Of a stretch of DNA of 64,000 bases, positions 23,433-37,112 are shown one piece after another. The position numbers were made by a program, and so were the translations under genes. The notes under the pieces were generated by a model. It saw only the letters and a list, made by a program, of their open reading frames with translations. It was not told the DNA's origin and searched no databases. Numbering within the stretch: position 1 is the first letter of the stretch; each line of letters starts with the position of its first letter. This stretch comes from Hallerella succinigenes (lineage in GTDB: Bacteria > Fibrobacterota > Fibrobacteria > Fibrobacterales > Fibrobacteraceae). Location of the stretch: assembly GCF_002797675.1 (NCBI RefSeq), contig NZ_PGEX01000001.1, forward strand, positions 2,666,001-2,730,000, read 5' to 3'.

Positions 23433-24850
23433 TCACTCTTCCTTTAGAGCGTTTTGCAAAGTCTTAGTGGTGCAATCCAAGGCGTCTGCCGCAGCGATTT
23501 GCGTTTTGTACTTGCTGCAGGCATTTTCCGCAAGATCCCGTTGAAAGCGCTTTGTTGCTTCTTTCCAAGAAAGATTTTCATAATCCGAAATTCGCGCTTT
23601 GTTTTCTGCGTCAGCTTTTTCTTCAAAAGAAAGATCTTGCAGAATTTCTGCGATGGATTTAGTCCCGTTCCAGGCGATGATCTGATACGCAAGAGATTGC
23701 AGATTACGAAAGTTTCCCGATAAGCTTGAAGTCTGCAAAAAATCTTTCAAAGCAGGATCCATGGGAACTTCTAAAGGGGAACTTTCCAAACGCGTTGTTT
23801 CCCAGGTTTTTGCCCAGTCATCCTGCAAATCTTCCCTGCATTCTCGGAGCGGCGGAAGCTCCACTGTATAAAAGCTGATGCGATCGTAAAAGTCGGGGTC
23901 CAACTTCTTCCGCAGTTCATCTTCGGACAAGTTGGAGGCGCATACAATTTCCACGTTTGCCGTTTCTTCTGTGTCGCTGCCCAGTGGACGGTAGCGGTGT
24001 TTTTTGTCTTGTAGAGTTCGCACCAGCTTTCGCTGGACTGATTTGGGTAAATCCTGAATTTCATCCAAAAAGAGAATCTTTCCGTCAGCTTCCTTCAACA
24101 GACCCTTTCTAGAATCGTTGGCACCGGTAAAGGCGCCTTTCTTGTGGCCGAACATCGTAGATTCCGCTAGAGAGGAGTCCAGAGAGCCACAGGCAAGTGT
24201 CACGACCTCCTTTTCTTTAATGGGGGCGATGAAGGATTCTACTAAGTGGCTCTTGCCGATTCCGCGTTCGCCGAGTAATAACAAGGGAACTCCTTGAACG
24301 CGGGAGTAAACCTTGACCTTCTCTAGGGCGTTTCGCCTTACCGTGGATTTGGCTTCTGGGTTATAGGAGCGTTCCTTCGGATTTTCTTTTTCGTATTTAC
24401 GAAGTTCGCCGAGGTATGTGGAAATGGGGAAGTCGACATCGTCGCAAAAGGTCGCGCCTGTAATACGGTTCTTTTGGGAAGAAACCAAGCGTGTGCCGGT
24501 GGGAAAAGCTCCTGCTGCATACAGAATAAGCCAAACCGCGTGCATGGCTGGGGTTCCCGAAGAAACATTGATCACAAGATTTTTTGCGCCCTCGACTTTC
24601 GAAATAATCTGGTTTTTGATGATGTCGTAAATCTCTTTGTGCTGAGTCGGATTTTTGACGACGACTTCAATGGGCGTTAAAACAGGACTAAGGGGCTTGA
24701 CCTTGTTCAGTATGCTCAAATGCTGATTTTGATAAAGATAAAGAATCTGGCTTATTTCATAAGTCTTTTCGAAATGCGATAGCAATGATTTTAAAACATC
24801 GGATCGTTGTTGACCGCCATCCAAGTGAGCAGCGTGACCTTTTCTTTCAT
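23433..24850 (-). CDS. RtcR-like CARF sensor/sigma-54 activator, apparently frameshifted
   Basis: Enhancer-binding activator of sigma-54 RNA polymerase. The C-terminal two-thirds has Walker A GERGIGKS, the sigma-54 contact loop GAFTGA, Walker B ILFLDEIQDL and a Fis-type HTH at the end. The N-terminal part resembles a CARF ligand-sensing domain with strand-loop VINVSSGTPAMHA, as in RtcR, whose domain senses RNA-repair intermediates. The intact frame runs 23433-24824 (TTG start). The likely first CARF strand, KVTLLTWMAVNNDPMF, lies in another frame from ATG 24850. One extra C at the CC (minus strand, 24801-24802) would fuse the two. Divergent from sigma-54-driven small genes, which are probably its targets. 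Confidence 0.82.
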
Positions 24851-25682: not shown

Positions 25683-26399
25683 CTATTTCTTCTTAATGCG
25701 GAAGACAGGTTGACCTTTGGAATTTTTCCCTTCTTCAAAATATTCTGTAGCGCGGATTAAAGAGGGCCATTTTGCATAGCCGTAGTTTTTGGGGCTCAAC
25801 GGAATTTGACGATTGATTTGTTGCGATACCTTCGATGCGACAGCCCATCCGGATTCATCAGCCTCTTCGCTTATAGCTTTACGAATTGCATTCATGATTT
25901 TTGCGTTGCCTCGCAATTTGTTACGGTCTAAAGGCTCAATATCGTTGGTTGCTGCATCCGATTCGGTTGGCTTCTTGAATTTGTCGATGTAGATGAAAGA
26001 ATTGCACGAATCGATGAACGGCTGTGGCGTTTTTTCTTCGCCGAACCCGATAACCTGTTTTGATTTGGCCCTGAGTTTCATGGCAAGCGGCGTGAAATCT
26101 GAATCGCTGCTCACGATGGCGAAAATGTCGATGCTTTCCGTGAACAGGAGTTCCATTACGTCGATAGTCATTGCGAGGTCGGTCGCATTTTTCCCCTTCG
26201 TGTAGGGAAACTGCTGTATCGGCTGAATCGCAAACGGATGCAAGACTTCTTCCCAGGGGTTGCTACCTTTCCAGTTGCCATATGCCCTTCGGATGCTTGT
26301 CTCCCCGAATTTGGAGAGTTCTTCCATAATGCCGTAAATGGCGTCCGCCTTGGCGTTGTCGCAGTCGATAATTAGGGCTATTTTCTTTTCCATTTCCAT
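25683..26399 (-). CDS. NYN-domain RNase with C-terminal OST-HTH/LOTUS-like domain
   Basis: PIN-like NYN-domain protein of the LabA/DUF88 type, a putative metal-dependent RNase. The N-terminal domain (about 1-145) has acidic active-site positions in ALIIDCDNAKAD, KGKNATDLAMTIDVME and VSSDSDFTPLA. The C-terminal segment (about 165-235, AKIMNAIRKAI to SLIRATEYFE) resembles the OST-HTH/LOTUS RNA-binding domain. At 238 aa the two-domain layout matches known bacterial proteins. It converges on the sigma-54-driven small genes, so the RNA theme continues, but it has its own promoter in 26400-26742. Confidence 0.9.
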   Translation of the reverse strand: MEMEKKIALIIDCDNAKADAIYGIMEELSKFGETSIRRAYGNWKGSNPWEEVLHPFAIQPIQQFPYTKGKNATDLAMTIDVMELLFTESIDIFAIVSSDSDFTPLAMKLRAKSKQVIGFGEEKTPQPFIDSCNSFIYIDKFKKPTESDAATNDIEPLDRNKLRGNAKIMNAIRKAISEEADESGWAVASKVSQQINRQIPLSPKNYGYAKWPSLIRATEYFEEGKNSKGQPVFRIKKK

Positions 26400-26742: not shown

Positions 26743-28959
26743 ATGAGAATTCTACTCGTTATCCATGGCTATCCTCCATACTACATGGCTGGTTCTGAGG
26801 TTTATACATACAACCTCGCACGGGAATTGGCGAAAACGAATGAAGTGTTCGTATTCCATCGCATTGAGGATAAAGATATCCCCTTGCACCAGTTCTTTGA
26901 CTCCTTTGAAGAGGGCGTGCATATTCGTAAGATCAACAATTACGAACCGACACCCGCCACCTTCTATGACAAATATCTGAATCCCGTAATCGACGACGCA
27001 TTCCGTGAGTATGTAAAAAGGGTCAATCCCGATGTCGTTCATATCGGCCATCTGTCGCATCTCTCCACGCAGATTCCTATCATCGCAAAAAGAGAATTCG
27101 GCCTCCCCGTTCTATTCACTATTCACGATTTCTGGATGTTCTGCCATCGCGGTCAACTCATTAATCCACAGAACTGGGAGATATGCCCCCTGCCCAATGT
27201 AGCGCAATGTACAAAGTGTGCCGCATTCCATTATCAAAAAGACGACTTTGAGTCTAGACTCATCGAGGAGCGCGATGAGCATATCCGCCAAACCCTAGAC
27301 TGCATTGATGTGTTTTTCGCACCGTCACATACGCTGGAGAACTTCTTTATAAACATGGGCGTTAATCGCCGTAAAATCGTTTATGCCAAATATGGGTTCA
27401 ATGTCTCGAAACTAGCCAAGCATTCCAAGGAGCTTCACCCCGAAATCACATTTGGTTTTACCGGCAGGATTATCCACACCAAGGGAGTCCACCTTCTTTG
27501 TGAAGCATTTAAAAAGGTCGAAGGAAACGCCAAGTTGCTCATTTATGGCGATTACGGAAGCGATTACGGCAATAGACTAAAGGAACACTATTCTAGTGAC
27601 CGAATCCAGTTCAAGGGTTCATACCATAATAATGAGCTGCAAAGTGTCCTAGACTCCCTGGATATTCTAGTGTGCCCGTCCATTTGGCTTGAAAATGCTC
27701 CGCTTGTTATACAGGAGGCACAAAGCGTTGAGCTCCCCGTGTTGGTAAGCGATAGGGGCGGGATGGCCGAACTTGTCCATGATGGCATAGATGGATTCAC
27801 GTTCAAGCTCGGTGATACTAAAGATCTTAGCAACAAGATACAGGACCTTGTCAATCATCCCGAAAAGATATTGAATCTTGTCAAGCCGATTGAGAAAGTC
27901 GTTTCGATAGAAGATGATGCGGCTCTATGCATGCAAAAGTACAACGAGATAAAGAAGCAGAACGTTGTGTACCCGCATAGTCCTTGCCCGCAGCGAATGA
28001 CGTTCATCACGAATCCCGACAAGTGCAATCTCCACTGCAAAATGTGTGACACGTTCTCAGAAGCGAATAGACACAGGCTAAAAGAGTCTCGTCGTCCAGA
28101 TTTAGACTTTAAAGTCGTCGAGGATACAATCGAAAGGCTTGTCCATCACGGCCTAAGAGAAATCATCCCCTCCACCATGGGAGAACCACTGCTGTACCCC
28201 CATTTCGAAGAACTCGTAGATTTGTGTAAGGTTCTCAATGTCAAGATGAACCTGACAACTAACGGGACGTTCCCTGTGAAAGATATTGAATACTGGGGTC
28301 CTAAACTAGTCAATATCATTTCGGATGTCAAGTTCAGCTTGAACGGGATAAACCCGGAAATCAATGAAAGTATCATGTGCGGAGCAGATACGCAAAAGCA
28401 ACTCCATAATATCGAACGATTCATCCAGATGCGGAACGAAGCTGCTTCTAAGGCAACAGTTACGTTGCAATGCACGTTCATGAGGTCTAACCTAGATGAA
28501 CTCAAGAATATGATTGCATGGGCTATCGAGCATGGAGTCGATCGTGTTAAAGGGCACCACCTCTGGAAAACGTCGGATGCTCTGGATTGCGAAATGCTCA
28601 GAACACCAGAAAATGCCGCCCTCTGGAATCAAACCTGTGAAGATTGCCACAAAATTGCCGACGGCAAGGTCAAGCTCGTGAATTTCGACCCTGTTGACTT
28701 GACAAAACCGGCCTTGAACAACGACAACACGTTCTGCCAATTCCTGGGAAAGGAACTATGGATAGAATACGATGGCTCGTACCAAATTTGCTGCTGTCCC
28801 TCAGAAGTCCGCAAGGAATTCGGCGATTTCGGGAATGTCAAGGAATTGTCGCCCTTGGCAATGTGGAACGAAAAGCTCTACTGCGATTTCATCAACAACT
28901 GGGGCAACAGTGAAAACTGCAAGAAATGCAACATGAGATGTGAACGCAAAGGAGAGTAA
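26743..28959 (+). CDS. GT4 glycosyltransferase / radical SAM-SPASM fusion
   Basis: Two enzymes in one 738-aa chain. Residues 1-about 400 form a GT-B retaining glycosyltransferase (GT4): N-terminal HGYPPYYMAGSE, GFTGRIIHTKG at about 240, and the nucleotide-sugar site WLENAPLVIQEA with LVSDRGGMAE at 312-344. Residues about 415-738 are a radical SAM enzyme with the cluster motif CNLHCKMC (C428, C432, C435), STMGEPLL, and a cysteine-rich SPASM-like tail (CCC at 683-685 and CKKCNMRC near the end). Cytoplasmic; no signal. First gene of a tightly packed operon. Proline codons and base composition differ from flanking core genes. Substrates unknown. Confidence 0.88.
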   Translation: MRILLVIHGYPPYYMAGSEVYTYNLARELAKTNEVFVFHRIEDKDIPLHQFFDSFEEGVHIRKINNYEPTPATFYDKYLNPVIDDAFREYVKRVNPDVVHIGHLSHLSTQIPIIAKREFGLPVLFTIHDFWMFCHRGQLINPQNWEICPLPNVAQCTKCAAFHYQKDDFESRLIEERDEHIRQTLDCIDVFFAPSHTLENFFINMGVNRRKIVYAKYGFNVSKLAKHSKELHPEITFGFTGRIIHTKGVHLLCEAFKKVEGNAKLLIYGDYGSDYGNRLKEHYSSDRIQFKGSYHNNELQSVLDSLDILVCPSIWLENAPLVIQEAQSVELPVLVSDRGGMAELVHDGIDGFTFKLGDTKDLSNKIQDLVNHPEKILNLVKPIEKVVSIEDDAALCMQKYNEIKKQNVVYPHSPCPQRMTFITNPDKCNLHCKMCDTFSEANRHRLKESRRPDLDFKVVEDTIERLVHHGLREIIPSTMGEPLLYPHFEELVDLCKVLNVKMNLTTNGTFPVKDIEYWGPKLVNIISDVKFSLNGINPEINESIMCGADTQKQLHNIERFIQMRNEAASKATVTLQCTFMRSNLDELKNMIAWAIEHGVDRVKGHHLWKTSDALDCEMLRTPENAALWNQTCEDCHKIADGKVKLVNFDPVDLTKPALNNDNTFCQFLGKELWIEYDGSYQICCCPSEVRKEFGDFGNVKELSPLAMWNEKLYCDFINNWGNSENCKKCNMRCERKGE

Positions 28960-28961
28960 TT

Positions 28962-29357
28962 ATGAAGATTCTTGTTTTCGGCAACATCGGTTCTGGAAAA
29001 TCCACATTGTCGCGAGTTATTTCAGAGAAGTTAAATGAATTTGAACTAGTCGAAATTGACGATTTTCGGAAACGCTATGGGGACGGAACTATGGAAGCCG
29101 AACAAGTCGCGAAACGGAATTTCTACAACGCCATCGTTCCAGAAAAAAATCAGATTATTGAGGTTATGGGTGCCGGGGATACAGGCGAAGCCCTGTTTGA
29201 AACAATGCAATCCATGCCGGAGCAGAAACTTGTCATAATATTAAAAACGCCCTTGGAAGAGTGCATTTTACGATTAAAGGAACGTCAATGGGTTGTTCCG
29301 TATCCGGCCCCGCCCGAAAAGGCTTTCTCACTTGCCGAAGAAACGGCCCCCCCCTGA
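28962..29357 (+). CDS. P-loop kinase-like protein, probably frameshifted
   Basis: N-terminal half of a small P-loop kinase (adenylate/shikimate/gluconate-kinase style). Walker A is FGNIGSGKST (residues 6-15), with ELVEIDDFRKRYG as the substrate-binding aspartate region. The frame stops at TGA right after a run of eight Cs (29347-29354). With seven Cs it would continue DPFWSDAWEMVPNERLH. The family-like end VDMDNISEESIKGLLLII lies in a third frame up to 29485, abutting the next gene. Two one-base indels therefore separate the halves. It could be a decaying gene, phase-variable at the C-run, or a sequencing error. Confidence 0.68.
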   Translation: MKILVFGNIGSGKSTLSRVISEKLNEFELVEIDDFRKRYGDGTMEAEQVAKRNFYNAIVPEKNQIIEVMGAGDTGEALFETMQSMPEQKLVIILKTPLEECILRLKERQWVVPYPAPPEKAFSLAEETAPP

Positions 29358-29481
29358 TCCATTCTGGAGCGATGCATGGGAAATGGTCCCAAATGAGCGC
29401 TTGCACAGTCGTTGACATGGATAACATCTCGGAAGAGTCTATCAAAGGGCTTCTCTTAATTATACAGGATATGGAGCAGTT

Positions 29482-30921
29482 ATGAAGCAAGAAGATATTA
29501 TTAAAACTATGACGGACGAGATGTTCCCCAAGAGCAAGGGGTTGAATGCAGCGCTTTTGATGGGTTCTTTTGCACGAGGAACATTTACGACAAGATCCGA
29601 TATTGATTTTTCGCTATGGGTGGAAAAGGATGGCTTTGTTGTCGAAGATTTCATCTCGCAACTGAACCTATGCCTTCCGGGTGTCAAGGATATTCGGTTT
29701 ATAGCCCTTCGTGAGAAGTTTGTCGTGTATTTCTCGGACTGCCCGAAAATGGAGTTGGCGATAACGATGCAAATGAGTGGCCTAGACAAGCATTTCCTTG
29801 GTTCAGAAATCGAGGCCAAGGAAAAGAGCATCGTTTTTGCAAATCCTGAGGTCGCCCCCGCTTTAAGGGAACATCTTGACGCGATTCTTTCAGAAAAGAA
29901 ACAAGGGCTTGATACAAGCAAGAAACGCCTTGTGAAGGACTTGGTGGATAAATTTATATATGAATTTGAAAACGCTTCCGATATGCACAGGAGGAGCGAT
30001 AGCTATCGATTTTACTTCGATTACAACATCGCTTTACACGTGGCAATCCAACTTTTGTACATTGCCCAGGGGCGAATAGACTTCTATTATTCACCCAGAA
30101 ACATCACAAAGTTTTTTGACAAGCAGCATAAAGAGGAATTTTTAGAACTAGCTTGCTCTTTGGCTCTCCCGGAAGCGAACAAAAAGAAGCGACAGCTTCT
30201 TAATTTCTTCTACAACGCGATAGAATTGTGCGGTTGCCACTCCGAGAAAGAAATAGACGACATCAAGTCGTTTCTTGAATACATCTACCAGAGGGACTAT
30301 ATATGGAATTTCCGCGATCTTTCCATGCTGTGTAAAAAATGCCGGCCTAGGGTTATTTTTCGCTCTTCGAGCTTTAGCCGCTATCAAGATAGCGACGCCT
30401 TTAATGTCGCCGTTGAAAAAAATGGGATTACGACCATAGTCGATATACGAGACGAAAAAGAGAAACAGGATAAACCCTACGACAGGAAATTGCTTAACGA
30501 TTACCATATAAGATACCTCCCGCTTCCAATGGATATCATGCGTTCGTTGGATTACGATTCAGAATTTCCTCACTACTCGGATATGGAAAAGGAATACCGT
30601 TGGTTCGCTTTGGGGAACAAGGAGTTTTTCCGTAAGTTTTTTACGGAGATTGACACTTCAAAAGAGGTGATAATGATTCACTGCCATGCAGGGAAAGACC
30701 GCACAGGATCGGTTTGCGCCCTCATTGGCTTACTTCTGGGGGAATCTGACGAGGTTCTTGAAAGCGAGTATCTCGAAAGCGAAATGGATGCTGATGTCCG
30801 GAATATTCGCTCTTTCATAGCGACAGTCAGGGAATGCGGGGGCGCAGAAGAATTTCTGCTTTCTTGTGGGGTCTCGACGCAGACAATAGAGCGATGGAAG
30901 GCCGATACCGCAGTGCGTTAA
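29482..30921 (+). CDS. Nucleotidyltransferase / tyrosine phosphatase fusion
   Basis: Unusual 479-aa fusion. Residues 1-about 110 form a DNA polymerase beta-type minimal nucleotidyltransferase with GSFARG (28-33) and SDID (39-42), the metal-binding aspartates. A helical middle (about 130-290) resembles the C-terminal domain of aminoglycoside/kanamycin nucleotidyltransferases. Residues about 295-479 form a bacterial tyrosine/lipid phosphatase of the IphP/Y_phosphatase3 type. Its P-loop is HCHAGKDRTGS (C401, R407), with TTIVDIRDEKEK upstream. The start TTATGA abuts the end of the broken kinase. Transfer and removal of a phospho-nucleotidyl group on one substrate is inference. Confidence 0.87.
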   Translation: MKQEDIIKTMTDEMFPKSKGLNAALLMGSFARGTFTTRSDIDFSLWVEKDGFVVEDFISQLNLCLPGVKDIRFIALREKFVVYFSDCPKMELAITMQMSGLDKHFLGSEIEAKEKSIVFANPEVAPALREHLDAILSEKKQGLDTSKKRLVKDLVDKFIYEFENASDMHRRSDSYRFYFDYNIALHVAIQLLYIAQGRIDFYYSPRNITKFFDKQHKEEFLELACSLALPEANKKKRQLLNFFYNAIELCGCHSEKEIDDIKSFLEYIYQRDYIWNFRDLSMLCKKCRPRVIFRSSSFSRYQDSDAFNVAVEKNGITTIVDIRDEKEKQDKPYDRKLLNDYHIRYLPLPMDIMRSLDYDSEFPHYSDMEKEYRWFALGNKEFFRKFFTEIDTSKEVIMIHCHAGKDRTGSVCALIGLLLGESDEVLESEYLESEMDADVRNIRSFIATVRECGGAEEFLLSCGVSTQTIERWKADTAVR

Positions 30922-30932
30922 GGATGAGGCAT

Positions 30933-31526
30933 ATGACAACATTATTGGAAAAGTTGCAAAAGATTGAAGATATGGATTCCAGGCGGATTGGCGTATTACT
31001 TCGCCATGGCGAACGCGAAGCTATTCCAGCGGGAAGCTATGGAAACGATGTTCTGCTCACCCCAAATGGGGTCGCTGATTCAACCCACTTTGGAAAAACT
31101 CTGTCTTGTTTCAAGGTGAACCGCATTTATACAAGCCCTGTTCCACGGTGTGTCCAAACTGCCGAGTGCATAAAAAAGGGGCTTAGCTCTAGTGCCCCAG
31201 AAATCATTTACGATGATATGCTTGGAAATCCTGGCTTTCATATCGCCGATGCCGATATAGCAGGCAAGGCTTATCTAGAGTATGGCTGCATGGGCGTCTA
31301 TGAACGCTTTTCTCGTGGCGAAATTGTAAATGGCCTTGCCTCGGCAGATTTTCTTCGGGTTCACCCCATACAATGGCTTAAGGCCAGAACTTCAGAAAAG
31401 GGCATGACACTCTTTGTGACACATGATGCGTCGATAGCTCATTTTGCTTTTGCCAACGGGATTCATGCTTATGATGCTGAGAATTGGATAAATTTTTTAG
31501 ACGGTATAATTCTTGATTTCACATAA
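30933..31526 (+). CDS. Histidine phosphatase superfamily protein
   Basis: Phosphoglycerate-mutase-like phosphatase of 197 aa. The phospho-accepting RHG is in VLLRHGERE (about residue 25). IYTSPVPRCVQTAE supplies the second arginine, and FVTHDASIA the C-terminal histidine. I use ATG 30933, preceded by GGATGAGG, in place of longer frames that overlap the NTase/phosphatase gene. Third phosphate-handling gene in a row, suggesting a phosphorylated sugar or alditol intermediate. The exact substrate is unknown. Confidence 0.9.
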   Translation: MTTLLEKLQKIEDMDSRRIGVLLRHGEREAIPAGSYGNDVLLTPNGVADSTHFGKTLSCFKVNRIYTSPVPRCVQTAECIKKGLSSSAPEIIYDDMLGNPGFHIADADIAGKAYLEYGCMGVYERFSRGEIVNGLASADFLRVHPIQWLKARTSEKGMTLFVTHDASIAHFAFANGIHAYDAENWINFLDGIILDFT

Positions 31527-31551
31527 GAACTTCTAGAGGAGTGCAAATAGA

Positions 31552-33225
31552 ATGTCTAAACCTACACTAGCCCTATATGGCATTAAAGACAGGAACAATA
31601 CTCCCTATCCGTCCTTCGTACATGATCACAACCTGTGCTTAATGCAGGATGGAAAGATTGTTAAATATTTGCAATTGGAGCGATATACACGGAGAAAATA
31701 CGACAATCGGTTAGACCTCTTCATTGAGGAACTGGTCGATGATGGAACGATTCCATTACCTGACGATTTTGACCTCGTGTGTGTCAATGATTTCACGGGT
31801 AACGCATTCATTTCGCATAGCGGAAGGTTGCATTTTGAAGCGAACAGGCTTGAAATTCTCTCCCCAGCATTGACTCCTGCACGGGCATATCTAAACAACC
31901 GCGAAGGGTGGGGCGGAAAGGAACTTGCTGCATATTGCTGCTCTCATGAACTAGCCCACATTTCTACCACAATTCCTTTTTATGGAGCATTTAAGGAGAA
32001 CAGTCTACTCATTTCGTTTGATGGGGCATCCAGTCTTGGCAATTATTCCGCTTTTTTATATCAAGATGGGATGCTCAAATTTGTTGAAAACAATTGGACA
32101 GATTTAGGCTTCGCATCAAAACTGTTCAACGACAACAAGCTTGCCTTTCGAACGCTTAATATTGCCCCCTATGCGCACTGCTCAGTTCCTGGAAAGCTGA
32201 TGGGCTTTGCAAGCTGGGGAACATATCAGCCAGAAATCGAGAACTGGCTTAGGGACAATCATTTCTTTAATGGATGCGGCCGACATCACGGGGTGGACAT
32301 ACTGCGGTCTGCAAAGGAAAGGTTTGGCGATGTTTGTCCAGAATTCGATACCAAGAACCCCTTTTTGCAAGATTGTGCAGCGACATTCCAGTACATTTTT
32401 GAAACAGCAGTGTTGACAAAACTTAAATCTCTTCAGGAGAAGTTCCATACCGACTATCTTTACTATGGCGGTGGATGCGCATTGAACATCGTGACCAACT
32501 CAAAGATTGTTGAAAGCGGAATGTTTAAGGACATCTTTATCGCTCCATGCTGCAATGATAGCGGGCTAAGCATCGGCGCAGCTGCATTCCTCGAAATGCA
32601 AAAGGGGAATAAGATTGAAATTCACAGTCCATACCTTTGTAATGTTGGCTTGCCGCATAATGATTTTGATATTGATGAAAATGAAATTTCCCGTGTAGCG
32701 GAAGTTCTTATGAAAGGCGGTATTGTCGGAGTGTGTAATGGTCCGGCAGAAGCTGGTCCCCGGGCACTTGGGAATCGCAGTTTGATCGCACTTGCAAATA
32801 GCCAGGAACTCGCAAAAAAAATGAGTATGGAAATAAAACGGCGCGAATGGTATCGTCCAGTAGCCCCGATAATGCTAGAGAAAAACGCAAGGAGAGTTAC
32901 GGATCAGAAGATTAACGGACTGGCTCGATTTATGCTTATGGACTTTACGATTAAGCCGGAATATAGGGCGCAGATGGCGGGTGTCGTTCACGCAAACGAT
33001 ACGGCAAGAATCCAGACTATTGCTAACGAAAGCGATAATCCCTTTATGTTCCGCCTACTTTCGTATTTGTACGAAAGGCATGGAATCCTCGCTCTTGTCA
33101 ACACATCATTCAATGTGCAGGGAGAGCCCATTGTGCATACGCCAGAGCAGGCCCTAGAATCGACGAAGCGAATGAACTTGGACGGTCTTGTGTTAAACGG
33201 AAAATTTCAAAAAATGGAGAAGTAA
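31552..33225 (+). CDS. NodU/CmcH-family carbamoyltransferase
   Basis: O-carbamoyltransferase of the NodU/CmcH/TobZ family, which uses carbamoyl phosphate and ATP to carbamoylate a hydroxyl. The N-terminal Kae1-like domain (about 1-350) has SHELAHISTTIPFYGAF with the metal histidines, LLISFDGASS and YGGGCALN. The C-terminal YrdC-like domain (about 380-557) has GPAEAGPRALGNRSL and EWYRPVAPIML. The length of 557 aa is normal. In such clusters it decorates nod factors, antibiotics or surface sugars. It is a strong pointer that this operon builds a carbamoylated product. Confidence 0.93.
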   Translation: MSKPTLALYGIKDRNNTPYPSFVHDHNLCLMQDGKIVKYLQLERYTRRKYDNRLDLFIEELVDDGTIPLPDDFDLVCVNDFTGNAFISHSGRLHFEANRLEILSPALTPARAYLNNREGWGGKELAAYCCSHELAHISTTIPFYGAFKENSLLISFDGASSLGNYSAFLYQDGMLKFVENNWTDLGFASKLFNDNKLAFRTLNIAPYAHCSVPGKLMGFASWGTYQPEIENWLRDNHFFNGCGRHHGVDILRSAKERFGDVCPEFDTKNPFLQDCAATFQYIFETAVLTKLKSLQEKFHTDYLYYGGGCALNIVTNSKIVESGMFKDIFIAPCCNDSGLSIGAAAFLEMQKGNKIEIHSPYLCNVGLPHNDFDIDENEISRVAEVLMKGGIVGVCNGPAEAGPRALGNRSLIALANSQELAKKMSMEIKRREWYRPVAPIMLEKNARRVTDQKINGLARFMLMDFTIKPEYRAQMAGVVHANDTARIQTIANESDNPFMFRLLSYLYERHGILALVNTSFNVQGEPIVHTPEQALESTKRMNLDGLVLNGKFQKMEK

Positions 33226-33226
33226 G

Positions 33227-33925
33227 ATGAATTGGCGAGATATTAAGGATTCACAAACGGAAAAGCGGTTCTATTACCATGGAGAACCTGTCTTTAAAGT
33301 TTTCAAGTCAATCTTGAAATTCCATGAGCCGGGGATCGCTCCCGTAGAGGACGAATCGGGATGGTACCATATCACCGTTGACGGATCCGAACTTTATTCG
33401 AGTCGCTATGAACGAACGTTTGGGTTCTATTGTGGTCTTGCAGCAGTAACATCAAAAGAGGGGTGTTGCCATATCGATGCTGCAGGCAAGCCTCTTTACA
33501 GCGAGCGCTATGCTTGGTGCGGGAATTTTCAGGAAAATATCTGTCCCGTTCGCAGCAAGGAGGGGGATTATTTCCACATCAATTCAAAAGGAAATCGCCT
33601 ATACTCGCAAACATTTTTCTATGCAGGTGATTTTAGAGACGGAATAGCCTGCGTAAAGTGCGTCGATGGCATGTGGCGCCATATCAAGGCTGATGGACAG
33701 TTCCTAAATGGCAAGGGATTCCTGGATCTGGGCGTTTTTCACAAGAACATCGCTCCAGCCCGCGATGAAAAGGGCTGGTTTCATTCTGATATTAACGGGA
33801 ACGAACTTTATCCTGAGCGCTATCTGAATATTGAACCGTTCTATAACGGTTTTGCACTCGTAACGAATTTCGACTGGACAAAGAAAATAATTGACGAAAA
33901 CGGGAGCACAATTTTATGCATTTGA
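33227..33925 (+). CDS. WG-repeat (KWG-type beta) protein
   Basis: A 232-aa protein made of about five repeats of about 38-40 residues of the form GWYHITVDGSELYSSRYE...F...G.A.V, matching the WG/KWG beta-repeat family usually seen on cell surfaces or as interaction scaffolds. There is no signal peptide, so it is probably cytoplasmic. It is 1 nt downstream of the carbamoyltransferase and overlaps the epimerase start by 10 nt, so it is translationally tied to the pathway. No catalytic motif; a scaffold or substrate-binding role is inferred. Confidence 0.82.
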   Translation: MNWRDIKDSQTEKRFYYHGEPVFKVFKSILKFHEPGIAPVEDESGWYHITVDGSELYSSRYERTFGFYCGLAAVTSKEGCCHIDAAGKPLYSERYAWCGNFQENICPVRSKEGDYFHINSKGNRLYSQTFFYAGDFRDGIACVKCVDGMWRHIKADGQFLNGKGFLDLGVFHKNIAPARDEKGWFHSDINGNELYPERYLNIEPFYNGFALVTNFDWTKKIIDENGSTILCI

Positions 33926-34851
33926 AAAACAAGAAAATTTTAGTAACCGGAGCACTCGGTTTTATTGGAAGGACGCTTTTGGAAACCCTTATTGAGCAGA
34001 ATTGTGAAGCAGAGCTTTATGGCATAGATATAAAGCCCTTTCCATCAAACGCCAATGCGCTCAAACAGAACATTCGCTACGAGCAACTGGATATCCGTAA
34101 TAAGGAGTTGGTGCAATCCTATGTCCGAAAGCACAAGTTCGACGGAATCGTTCATCTGGCAGCAGTGAGCCGTGTCGAAGATGCAGAAAACGACAAGAAA
34201 AACTGCATCGATACAAATTATAATGGAACCAAATACATCGCTACCGCAGCCGCCGAAAATAGGAGTTCCTGGTTTATTTTCGGAAGCAGTCGTGAAGTTT
34301 ATGGTGAACAAAAAAATTTTCCTGTTTCTGAAAATGCTGATTTACTTCCGCTCAATATCTATGGCTTTTACAAGCTGGAAGGCGAACGCATCGTGAAAGC
34401 CTCATTTGAAAAATATTGCGTTTTGCGATTCTCAAATGTATATGGCAATGCATACGATATCCCCAAACGCGTCATTCCTAAATTCGTTCAAACTGCCTTG
34501 CAAGGCGGAGAATTGACACTTGAAGGTGGTGCTCAGATTATTGACTTCACATTCATTGACGATACCGTCAAGTCAATTATAAGATGCATGGAATTTCTAG
34601 ACGCAGGTAAAATCAAAAAGGAAACTATTCATATCCTGCCAGGCAGAGAAAACAGGATTACAGATATAATTGACATTTTGCGGGAGAAACAAATGTATTT
34701 TTCTGTTCTGAAAAAAGATGCCCGCAGCTACGATGTTCAGCAATTCTTAGGGAACTCTAATCACATGCGCGATGTTTTAGAATTGGATCCGAGTCATTTC
34801 GTGACTTTAGAAGAAGGTATTGATAAATATTTATCAAGAATTGATTATTAA
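33916..34851 (+). CDS. NAD-dependent sugar epimerase/dehydratase
   Basis: Extended SDR enzyme acting on nucleotide sugars. The NAD-binding motif is TGALGFIG (residues about 11-18), with YGIDIKP after strand 2, HLAAVSR, FGSSREVYGE, and the catalytic tyrosine/lysine in YGFYK. RFSNVYG is the substrate-loop hallmark of the GalE/RmlB group. At 311 aa it is full length. Last gene of the accessory operon, followed 5 nt later by a terminator. Which sugar it handles cannot be told. Confidence 0.92.
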   Translation: MHLKNKKILVTGALGFIGRTLLETLIEQNCEAELYGIDIKPFPSNANALKQNIRYEQLDIRNKELVQSYVRKHKFDGIVHLAAVSRVEDAENDKKNCIDTNYNGTKYIATAAAENRSSWFIFGSSREVYGEQKNFPVSENADLLPLNIYGFYKLEGERIVKASFEKYCVLRFSNVYGNAYDIPKRVIPKFVQTALQGGELTLEGGAQIIDFTFIDDTVKSIIRCMEFLDAGKIKKETIHILPGRENRITDIIDILREKQMYFSVLKKDARSYDVQQFLGNSNHMRDVLELDPSHFVTLEEGIDKYLSRIDY

Positions 34852-34855
34852 ACCC

Positions 34856-34886
34856 CTCCCCGGCCCAGCGCTCGGGGAGTTTTTTG
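34856..34886 (+). terminator. Terminator of the accessory operon
   Basis: Stem CTCCCCG/CGGGGAG with a 10-nt loop is followed by T6, five bases after the epimerase stop. Confidence 0.88.
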
Positions 34887-35368: not shown

Positions 35369-35528
35369 AAAAATTTGTTTAATAAGAAAAAAACTAGAAA
35401 TACAGAGAGCTCCTCATAAAAGCGACATAAAACTTTTTATAAGGTAAGACCCAATGGTTTTAACCTTTTTCATCTAAAATGCTCTTCGGAATTTGCAAAG
35501 ATTGTGGAGCATTGTGTATATTGTTGAC

Positions 35529-37112
35529 ATGGCAAGAAAGTTCCCCATAGGCATACAGACGTTTTCCGAAATCCGGAAAATGAACGCAATCTACGTTGAT
35601 AAAACCGCGCTAGTCCACAAGTTGGCCGAGGACGGCAAGGTCTATTTCCTTGCACGTCCACGCCGTTTCGGAAAGTCTCTCCTCATCAGCACGCTAGATG
35701 ACTACTTCAGCGGTCGCAAGGAACTCTTCACGGGGCTTGCCATGGAAAAGCTTGAAACCGAGTGGAAAAAACACCCGGTGCTGCGGTTCGATTTCAGCCG
35801 GAGCAAGTACACCAGCTTAAATGTATTGCAGACTCAACTGAATTCAATGCTTTCGGAATACGAGAGCATCTATGGGAAGAAGACCGACGATACGCTCCCG
35901 AGCGTTCGCCTGCAAAACGTCATTCTCGCCGCCGAGCAAAAATTCGGCGAAAAGGTCGTGTTCCTTGTGGACGAATACGACGCACCTCTCCTCGACACCC
36001 TTGTGGACAAGGAAACCTTCGAGGCGATGCGCCAGACTCTGCGCGACTTCTACAGCCCGCTCAAGAGCCTCGACCCGCATCTGCGATTCATTTTCATCAC
36101 CGGCATCACCAAGTTCAGCCAACTCTCCATTTTCAGCGAACTCAACAACCTGAAAATCATCTCGATGCTCGACGAATATGCGACCCTCTGCGGCATCTCC
36201 GAAGAGGAACTGCACACGCAGATGAAGCCCGAAATCGAGGCGATGGCGCAGGCAATAAACAAAAACTTCGAGCAGGTGTGCGAGGCGCTCAAGAAAAAAT
36301 ACGACGGCTACCATTTCTCGAAAAAATCCCCCGACATCTACAATCCGTTCAGCGTGATGCAGGCGCTACAGGATAAAGACCTCACCAACTACTGGTTCGA
36401 AACCGGTACGCCGGCCTATCTGATTGAGCAGATTAGGAATTACAACATCGACCCCGAAACGTTCGCACGCGGCATCGAGGCGACCGTCGAGATGTTCAAC
36501 GTGCCTGCGGAAAGCAATGCGAACCCGATTCCCGTGCTTTACCAGAGTGGCTACCTTACCATCAAGGACTACGACCCCGAACTGAACATATACACGCTGG
36601 CATACCCCAACGACGAAGTGACCGTCGGGTTCTCGAAATGCCTCATGCCGTATTACGCGCTGCCCACGATTGCGCAAAACGACTCCTTCCAGATTAGGCT
36701 CGTAAAGGCGCTGCATGCGGGCAACATTGAAGAGGCCCTGCTACAGATGCGGGCGTTCTTCAGTTCCATTCCTTACGATGCCGAGCATCAGGACGAGAAC
36801 CACTACAAATTCGTATTCTGGCTGATTTTCCGCTTACTCACCGAATTCAACGTCAAGACGGAAGAACGTAGCGCAGCCGGTCGTTCCGATGCTGTTGTGG
36901 AAACTAAAAACTCGGTTTACTTATTCGAGTTTAAACTGGACAAGAACGGCTCTGCCGACGATGCTCTGAAACAGATTGATAACAAGGGCTACCTGATACC
37001 CTATACCGCGTCACTCGATGCGAACGGCAATCCGAAAAAGCTCTTCAAGATTGGCGTGAGTTTCGATGCCGAAAGGCGCACCCTCGGCGAATGGAAGGTC
37101 ACGGAAACGTAG
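35529..37112 (+). CDS. AAA-ATPase-like / PD-(D/E)XK nuclease family protein
   Basis: Member of a family abundant in Bacteroidota and Fibrobacterota that pairs an AAA-ATPase-like domain with a PD-(D/E)XK-type nuclease domain. The N-terminal family opening FPIGIQTFSEIR is followed by YVDKTALV, a P-loop in ARPRRFGKSLL (about residue 40), and Walker B VFLVDEYDAPL. At the C-terminus RSDAVVETKNSVYLFEFKLDKNG gives the nuclease D...E-x-K core. At 527 aa from ATG 35529 it is full length. Family function is unproven; mobile-element or defence roles have been suggested. Composition is richer in G+C than the operon before it. Confidence 0.9.
   Translation: MARKFPIGIQTFSEIRKMNAIYVDKTALVHKLAEDGKVYFLARPRRFGKSLLISTLDDYFSGRKELFTGLAMEKLETEWKKHPVLRFDFSRSKYTSLNVLQTQLNSMLSEYESIYGKKTDDTLPSVRLQNVILAAEQKFGEKVVFLVDEYDAPLLDTLVDKETFEAMRQTLRDFYSPLKSLDPHLRFIFITGITKFSQLSIFSELNNLKIISMLDEYATLCGISEEELHTQMKPEIEAMAQAINKNFEQVCEALKKKYDGYHFSKKSPDIYNPFSVMQALQDKDLTNYWFETGTPAYLIEQIRNYNIDPETFARGIEATVEMFNVPAESNANPIPVLYQSGYLTIKDYDPELNIYTLAYPNDEVTVGFSKCLMPYYALPTIAQNDSFQIRLVKALHAGNIEEALLQMRAFFSSIPYDAEHQDENHYKFVFWLIFRLLTEFNVKTEERSAAGRSDAVVETKNSVYLFEFKLDKNGSADDALKQIDNKGYLIPYTASLDANGNPKKLFKIGVSFDAERRTLGEWKVTET

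What the first reader, a model, noticed from the sequence alone, without database searches (positions are those of the whole stretch)
26743..34851. Undescribed seven-gene operon for a carbamoylated glycan or small molecule
Tightly packed genes: GT4/radical SAM fusion, P-loop kinase, nucleotidyltransferase/phosphatase fusion, histidine phosphatase, NodU/CmcH-type carbamoyltransferase, WG-repeat protein, sugar epimerase, then a terminator. Codon choice (CCC/CCT/CCA for proline rather than CCG) and A+T content differ from the flanking core genes, suggesting horizontal gain. Kinase, nucleotidyltransferase, phosphatases and epimerase fit activated-sugar metabolism. Radical SAM plus carbamoyltransferase fit tailoring. 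I know of no named system with this set.
Basis: partly seen in the sequence, partly recalled or inferred. Interest (0 to 1): 0.72.

Follow-up and report, generated by a model that had tools for sequence, protein, structure and literature searches.

The report
Mobile viperin-associated sugar-tailoring operon family
A block of seven genes that bacteria of unrelated phyla pass to one another keeps a fixed core of sugar- and radical-chemistry enzymes while swapping its decorating enzymes; in relatives it sits beside the antiviral enzyme viperin and stress-sensing regulators, so it probably makes a small defensive molecule rather than an ordinary surface sugar.

Summary
The seven genes, their tight packing, the terminator and the foreign composition are confirmed. 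The first gene (GT4/radical-SAM fusion), the WG gene and the epimerase have 88-93% identical counterparts in Fibrobacter genomes and the fusion is missing from the other 164 Fibrobacterota searched. The middle genes differ from copy to copy. Relatives occur in Bacteroidota, UBP6, Proteobacteria, Campylobacterota and others. WG is next to GT4-rSAM in 33 of 33 loci with enough flank. Carbamoyltransferase (17 loci) and O-methyltransferase (10) never co-occur, as if they were alternative caps. The window kinase is frameshifted at a C8 tract.

In Bacteroidota the operon often lies divergent from an RtcR-type sigma-54 activator. Of 16 informative activator loci, 11 have the cassette and two have other radical-SAM defence genes. 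In two genomes, true viperin lies between activator and cassette. The window has a related but frameshifted activator nearby.

Best reading: a horizontally exchanged operon making a small cytosolic, capped glycoside, probably a radical-SAM chemical defence. Function is untested. Part of the core (epimerase, GT4-rSAM, WG) matches the Undecim Cluster of Wolbachia phage WO, so the set is not wholly undescribed.

The parts
23433..24850 (-). CARF-like sigma-54 AAA+ activator (RtcR-like bEBP), apparent frameshift near 24800-24806
   Evidence: Sigma54_activat 1.5e-36, Csm6_CARF 5e-5 (below cut-off); intact paralogues 57-66% identical; frameshift located. Belonging to the system is inferred.
25683..26399 (-). 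NYN nuclease-type + OST-HTH/LOTUS protein
   Evidence: NYN 2e-36, OST-HTH 2e-8; first gene of the cassette operon in L115; beside a c4 paralogue in L122; also in many Fibrobacter genomes without the cassette
26743..28959 (+). GT4 glycosyltransferase fused to radical SAM/SPASM; core gene
   Evidence: Pfam; invariant CxxxCxxC 428/432/435 and Ex7E 317-325; 90-93% identity in three Fibrobacter genomes
28962..29357 (+). P-loop (nucleoside-type) kinase, truncated; coding remnant runs on in another frame to 29485
   Evidence: AAA_18 1e-7, dNK 7e-7; PADLOC VakA 8e-7; full-length homologue L077:5041-5637
29347..29354 (+). C8 tract where the kinase frame breaks
29482..30921 (+). Pol-beta nucleotidyltransferase fused to tyrosine phosphatase (PF13350); exchangeable module
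   Evidence: homologues L071, L077, L081, L102 with conserved GS...DxD and HCxxGKDRTG; also L171
30933..31526 (+). histidine phosphatase
   Evidence: His_Phos_1 2e-11; 55-56% to G130/G077, 27% to G080
31552..33225 (+). NodU/CmcH/TobZ-type O-carbamoyltransferase; alternative to an O-methyltransferase in other copies
   Evidence: Carbam_trans_N/C; profile hits TobZ, GdmN and other solved carbamoyltransferases; CT/OMT exclusivity
33227..33925 (+). WG-repeat beta-propeller protein; core gene
   Evidence: AlphaFold pLDDT 94.8; Foldseek matches to propellers; present in 33/33 loci with enough flank
33916..34851 (+). NAD-dependent sugar epimerase/dehydratase
   Evidence: Epimerase 1e-42; 88-91% identity in Fibrobacter
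34856..34886 (+). intrinsic terminator; DNA similarity to the Fibrobacter copies ends here

Best explanation
It is one copy of a horizontally exchanged biosynthetic operon with a conserved chassis (GT4, radical SAM/SPASM, WG propeller, a phosphatase, often an NDP-sugar epimerase) and exchangeable tailoring genes. Shown here: the recurring architecture, the exchange of the middle genes, and the linkage to RtcR-type activators and viperin in Bacteroidota. Inferred: the epimerase supplies an NDP-sugar; the GT4 joins it to a phosphorylated small acceptor in the cytosol, as MshA-type GT4 enzymes do; the radical SAM domain alters the product; a histidine or tyrosine phosphatase frees a hydroxyl; the carbamoyltransferase (in other copies an O-methyltransferase) caps it; WG holds or presents an intermediate. 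The product is a small intracellular molecule made on demand when a CARF/RtcR-type activator senses damaged RNA or infection, and it acts against phage in the way viperin's modified nucleotides do. The frameshifted kinase and activator leave open whether the window copy works fully.
For: Conserved order across phyla. WG in 33/33 loci, HP or PTP in 28/33, CT and OMT never together (17 v 10). Activator linkage: 21 Bacteroidia genomes with the long activator; of 16 with enough sequence, 11 have the cassette beside it, one viperin, one PDC-M51A radical SAM + kinase, three neither. Viperin precedes GT4 in G1022 and G944 (NCBIfam 312 and 270 bits, cut-off 180). RtcR domain in 5/9 activators, best 1.5e-5. 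Activators of this kind beside restriction and CoCoNuT systems: PMC4012209, PMC11090510. Paralogues of the window activator lie beside Mokosh-like and candidate defence genes. No membrane segment in the cassette proteins tested.
Against: No phage assay or product is known. Most copies have no viperin and many (Fibrobacter, Campylobacterota) no activator. The activator profile was built from cassette-linked members, which favours such loci. No sigma-54 promoter was found by a simple scan. The CARF assignment is below Pfam cut-offs for most proteins and the AlphaFold test failed. The window activator is of another subfamily and frameshifted. The Undecim Cluster authors predicted polysaccharide/LPS functions for the same core.
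Confidence: 0.45

Rival explanations
1. A surface-glycan decoration operon: an epimerase-made sugar is transferred by the GT4 to lipid-linked or cell-surface polysaccharide and carbamoylated or methylated; swapping of tailoring genes diversifies a phage- or host-exposed epitope.
For: GT4, epimerase, carbamoyl- and methyltransferases are usual in polysaccharide loci; mosaic middle with conserved ends resembles antigen loci; the Undecim Cluster was predicted to serve EPS/LPS synthesis; GT4 profile matches include polysaccharide and protein-glycosylation GT4 enzymes.
Against: No flippase, polymerase, export or membrane protein; copies checked stand among unrelated genes, not in capsule clusters; viperin and RtcR-type activators have no reason to be there.
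Confidence: 0.2
2. An RNA repair or RNA modification system: kinase, nucleotidyltransferase and phosphatases heal or tag RNA ends, with radical SAM and carbamoyl steps on RNA, under an RtcR-type sensor.
For: RtcR-type activators; NYN/LOTUS gene in the G844 operon; kinase, NTase and phosphatase in the window.
Against: Kinase and NTase are missing from most copies; no RNA ligase or RNA-binding core gene; GT4, epimerase, O-methyltransferase, class II aldolase and APH fit small molecules better.
Confidence: 0.1
3. The window copy is a decaying passenger of a real system: acquired from a Fibrobacter-like donor and losing function through frameshifts in the kinase and the activator.
For: Frameshifts at 29347-29354 and about 24800; absent from five congeners.
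Against: The other six genes are intact with catalytic motifs kept; the kinase is absent from most copies; homopolymer shifts may be sequencing errors or phase variation.
Confidence: 0.15
4. A ribosomal-peptide (RiPP) pathway: the SPASM radical SAM modifies a small peptide that the GT4 glycosylates.
For: SPASM domain; small ORFs of about 100 aa between activator and GT4 in some Bacteroidota loci.
Against: No precursor-like peptide in the window or most copies; no leader peptidase or peptide transporter seen; SPASM enzymes also act on sugars (own knowledge).
Confidence: 0.08

Closest known systems
Undecim Cluster of Wolbachia phage WO (WD0611-WD0621; PMC9203015) and its relative on Arsenophonus plasmids
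   Same: Epimerase (UC2), GT4-radical SAM fusion (UC3, 37% identity over 99%) and WG protein (UC4, 45%) in a row; mobile between unrelated bacteria; function unknown
   Different: No carbamoyltransferase, kinase, NTase-PTP or histidine phosphatase found there; it has threonine-aldolase-like genes, transporters and other genes; different gene order
Prokaryotic viperins (pVip)
   Same: Radical SAM chemistry with a nucleotide kinase; a viperin gene lies in the same run of genes in G1022 and G944
   Different: The window has no viperin; its radical SAM/SPASM domain belongs to another family (viperin model 35.7 bits, cut-off 180)
RtcR and RtcR-like CARF sigma-54 activators
   Same: CARF/RtcR-like N-terminus + NtrC-type AAA; placed beside an operon with defence-type genes
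   Different: No rtcBA genes seen beside it; the window form has a short N-terminus and a frameshift
NodU/CmcH/TobZ O-carbamoyltransferases
   Same: Full N- and C-terminal domains
   Different: Own subfamily of the cassette (64-73% identity among the aligned copies); substrate unknown

Membership tests
Undecim Cluster (phage WO) | Eleven conserved genes WD0611-WD0621 | tested here: not met
   Only epimerase, GT4-rSAM and WG match L175; CT, HP, NTase-PTP and kinase do not
Undecim Cluster (phage WO) | Epimerase, GT4/radical SAM fusion and WG core | tested here: met
   All three genes present in both; order differs
Undecim Cluster (phage WO) | Carried by phage WO or endosymbiont elements | tested here: not met
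   Chromosomal locus of a Fibrobacterota genome; no viral contig in IMG/VR matched
Prokaryotic viperin defence (pVip) | Protein scoring above the viperin model cut-off | tested here: not met
   Window GT4-rSAM 35.7 bits v 180; met by linked proteins in L171, L172, L155
Prokaryotic viperin defence (pVip) | Anti-phage activity | not testable with these tools
   Needs plaque assays
NodU/CmcH O-carbamoyltransferase | Carbam_trans_N and Carbam_trans_C domains | tested here: met
   8e-24 and 6e-51
NodU/CmcH O-carbamoyltransferase | Carbamoylation of a hydroxyl | not testable with these tools
   Needs enzyme assay; H132-x3-H136 and D157 invariant in 13 homologues
RtcR-like CARF bEBP (window 23433-24850) | CARF-type N-terminal domain | tested here: inconclusive
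   Csm6_CARF 5e-5, below cut-off; RtcR in 5/9 long relatives, best 1.5e-5; fold prediction failed
RtcR-like CARF bEBP (window 23433-24850) | Sigma-54 AAA domain | tested here: met
   Sigma54_activat 1.5e-36
Capsule/LPS polysaccharide locus | Flippase/polymerase/export genes and several glycosyltransferases | tested here: not met
   None among cassette genes; one GT4 only

The most novel reading that the evidence does not exclude
A new class of modular chemical immunity: radical-SAM operons that build a variably capped cytosolic glycoside under RtcR-type damage sensors, working with or in place of viperin, of which the Undecim Cluster of phage WO is an endosymbiont offshoot.
Probability: 0.35. 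Interest if true: 0.88.

Novelty: new variant of a known kind. Interest (0 to 1): 0.76.

Why it matters
If right, viperin is not the only radical-SAM chemical weapon of bacteria: a whole exchangeable operon family makes further antiviral small molecules, with tailoring genes swapped perhaps to outrun phage resistance. It would also give the first functional lead for the GT4-rSAM/WG core of the Undecim Cluster, highly expressed in Wolbachia but unexplained, and a place to look for new carbamoylated, nucleotide- or sugar-derived antivirals. Even if the defence reading fails, a WG propeller tied without exception to one GT4/radical SAM pair is a new biochemical association to test.

Tried and rejected
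Cassette in viral contigs: one pattern hit, none confirmed. Simple sigma-54 promoter scan upstream of the operons: no consistent site. Literature for radical SAM + WG repeat + carbamoyltransferase and for viperin + glycosyltransferase + carbamoyltransferase: no relevant paper. WG against solved structures by sequence: nothing significant. AlphaFold of the activator N-terminus with three sequences: pLDDT 46, unusable. NTase-PTP as a phylum bait: no fusion elsewhere in Fibrobacterota, only separate domains. NYN as an obligate part: rejected, it is common in Fibrobacter without the cassette. Window activator as a cassette-only gene: rejected, its paralogues sit by other candidate defence operons. 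Capsule-locus reading tested by looking at neighbours of split-gene copies: housekeeping genes, not polysaccharide genes.
Full report
What is there. The window is positions 2666001-2730000 of a single-contig 3.13 Mb genome of a Fibrobacterota species, in a genus of the same family as Fibrobacter (the three matching genomes are named Fibrobacter). ORF and Pfam searches confirm the seven genes and their order. GC (44.4% v 50-52%), GC3 (0.48 v 0.60) and proline codons (CCG 25% v 69%) differ from the flanks. A conserved terminator closes the block. The kinase frame is broken at a C8 run; its homologue in L077 continues in the other frame.

Horizontal gain. GT4-rSAM is 90-93% identical to copies in three Fibrobacter genomes and absent as a fusion from the other 164 Fibrobacterota searched, including five congeners. 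At DNA level the window copy is closer to G080 (89.9%) than G080 is to G130 of its own genus (87.1%), and DNA similarity starts at the first codon and stops just past the terminator. GC of the Fibrobacter copies (41-44%) matches the window block.

Exchangeable middle. Between the conserved ends, the window has kinase, NTase-PTP, HP, CT; G080 has class II aldolase, a distant HP, radical SAM, APH, a second radical SAM, and CT at 70%; G130 and G077 have only an HP at 55-56%. A scan of 84,980 species found the full GT4-rSAM in rumen and gut Bacteroidales, UBP6 and an alphaproteobacterial MAG at about 70-80%, and as two adjacent genes in Arcobacter, Thiotrichaceae, Parabeggiatoa, Persephonella and an Asgard MAG at 41-45%. 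L071 and L081 have the window's set without the kinase; L077 has kinase, NTase-PTP, CT and WG in the window's order with HP moved ahead. Campylobacterota copies read EPI-GT4-rSAM-WG(-OMT)-HP. The cassette is patchy: 5 of 393 genomes in the Bacteroidales order and 3 of 249 in the Arcobacter order at the thresholds used.

Regularities. Over 33 loci with at least 2.5 kb downstream, WG is present in all, a histidine or tyrosine phosphatase in 28, an epimerase in 18, CT in 17, OMT in 10, and CT and OMT never together (chance about 1e-4 if loci were independent, which they are not fully). OMT is fused to HP in L069/L083 and to WG in L084/L104, tying WG to the chemistry. WG is a confident beta-propeller model (pLDDT 94.8) resembling BamB and designed propellers only at fold level, with no solved sequence relative. 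Catalytic motifs of GT4, radical SAM, NTase and PTP are conserved. The proteins tested have no membrane segment and no transporter is included.

Regulator and viperin. Divergently upstream of many Bacteroidota copies lies a sigma-54 AAA activator of about 600 aa whose N-terminus matches Pfam RtcR, a CARF-type sensor, in 5 of 9 members, best 1.5e-5. Searching with this activator instead of the cassette gave 21 genomes. Of 16 with enough neighbouring sequence, 11 have the cassette next to it (G480, G175, G354, G408, G357, G561, G844, G985, G963, G1022, G944), G431 has viperin at a contig edge, G201 has PDC-M51A radical SAM plus a nucleotide kinase, and G261, G886, G958 have neither. In G1022 the order is activator | viperin, CMP-type kinase, GT4, rSAM, NTase-PTP, CT; in G944 viperin ends 13 bases before GT4. 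These viperins pass the curated cut-off (312 and 270 v 180 bits). The profile was built from four cassette-linked activators, so the fraction is biased upward, but viperin and PDC-M51 were not sought and point the same way.

The window's own neighbourhood. A shorter, frameshifted CARF-like sigma-54 activator (23433-24850) and an NYN/LOTUS gene (25683-26399) lie on the opposite strand. In G844 an NYN gene heads the cassette operon. In G129 the same pair is adjacent in a run with Mokosh-like and PDC-S27 genes, and other paralogues, including a second copy in this genome, lie by candidate defence operons. So the window cassette lies in what looks like a defence island, but that the activator controls it is inference.

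Comparison with known systems. The nearest named relative is the Undecim Cluster of Wolbachia phage WO: UC2 epimerase, UC3 GT4-radical SAM, UC4 WG protein (PMC9203015). Its authors predicted polysaccharide, methylation and antibiotic-related functions from annotation and homology. RtcR-like activators beside restriction and CoCoNuT defence operons are on record (PMC4012209, PMC11090510). I found no paper joining viperin, GT4-radical SAM, WG and carbamoyltransferase.

Verdict.

Noticed in passing
29347-29354: C8 tract breaking the kinase frame, the only C or G run of 7+ in the window; could be phase variation, decay or a sequencing error.
   Followed up: partly
24800-24850: Apparent frameshift in the CARF-like activator; a 65% identical intact paralogue lies at 1814322 of the same genome beside Mokosh-like genes (L128).
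   Followed up: partly
L072:3999-4292, L076:9695-9976, L077:4667-4981, L102:13446-13748, L166:8333-8677: Family of about 100-aa proteins (motif like KTxHFxxRQWERxxxD) between activator and GT4, or just after GT4-rSAM in L077; no Pfam match. Position recalls the BrnT-like proteins near RtcR-linked CoCoNuTs.
   Followed up: partly
L175 and L176: Phage WO Undecim Cluster and Arsenophonus plasmid share epimerase-GT4-rSAM-WG with the window cassette, at 31-45% identity.
   Followed up: yes
L156:7374-9412: RtcR-type activator divergent from PDC-M51A (radical SAM) and an adenylate-type kinase: another candidate radical-SAM defence operon.
   Followed up: partly
L069:4576-9289 and L081:3769-8289: MoxR/vWA-type conflict genes next to the cassette in two related genomes.
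   Followed up: no
L068 and L079: Two different cassettes in one alphaproteobacterial MAG; the small-ORF flank of L068 matches a Fibrobacter locus (L067), so contamination or recent transfer is possible.
   Followed up: no
window 35493-37112: AAA-type ORF just downstream of the cassette with a 38% identical homologue in G025 (L064) near a distant carbamoyltransferase.
   Followed up: no
L168:7190-7804: Dioxygenase-like ORF divergent from an RtcR-type activator that has no cassette.
   Followed up: no
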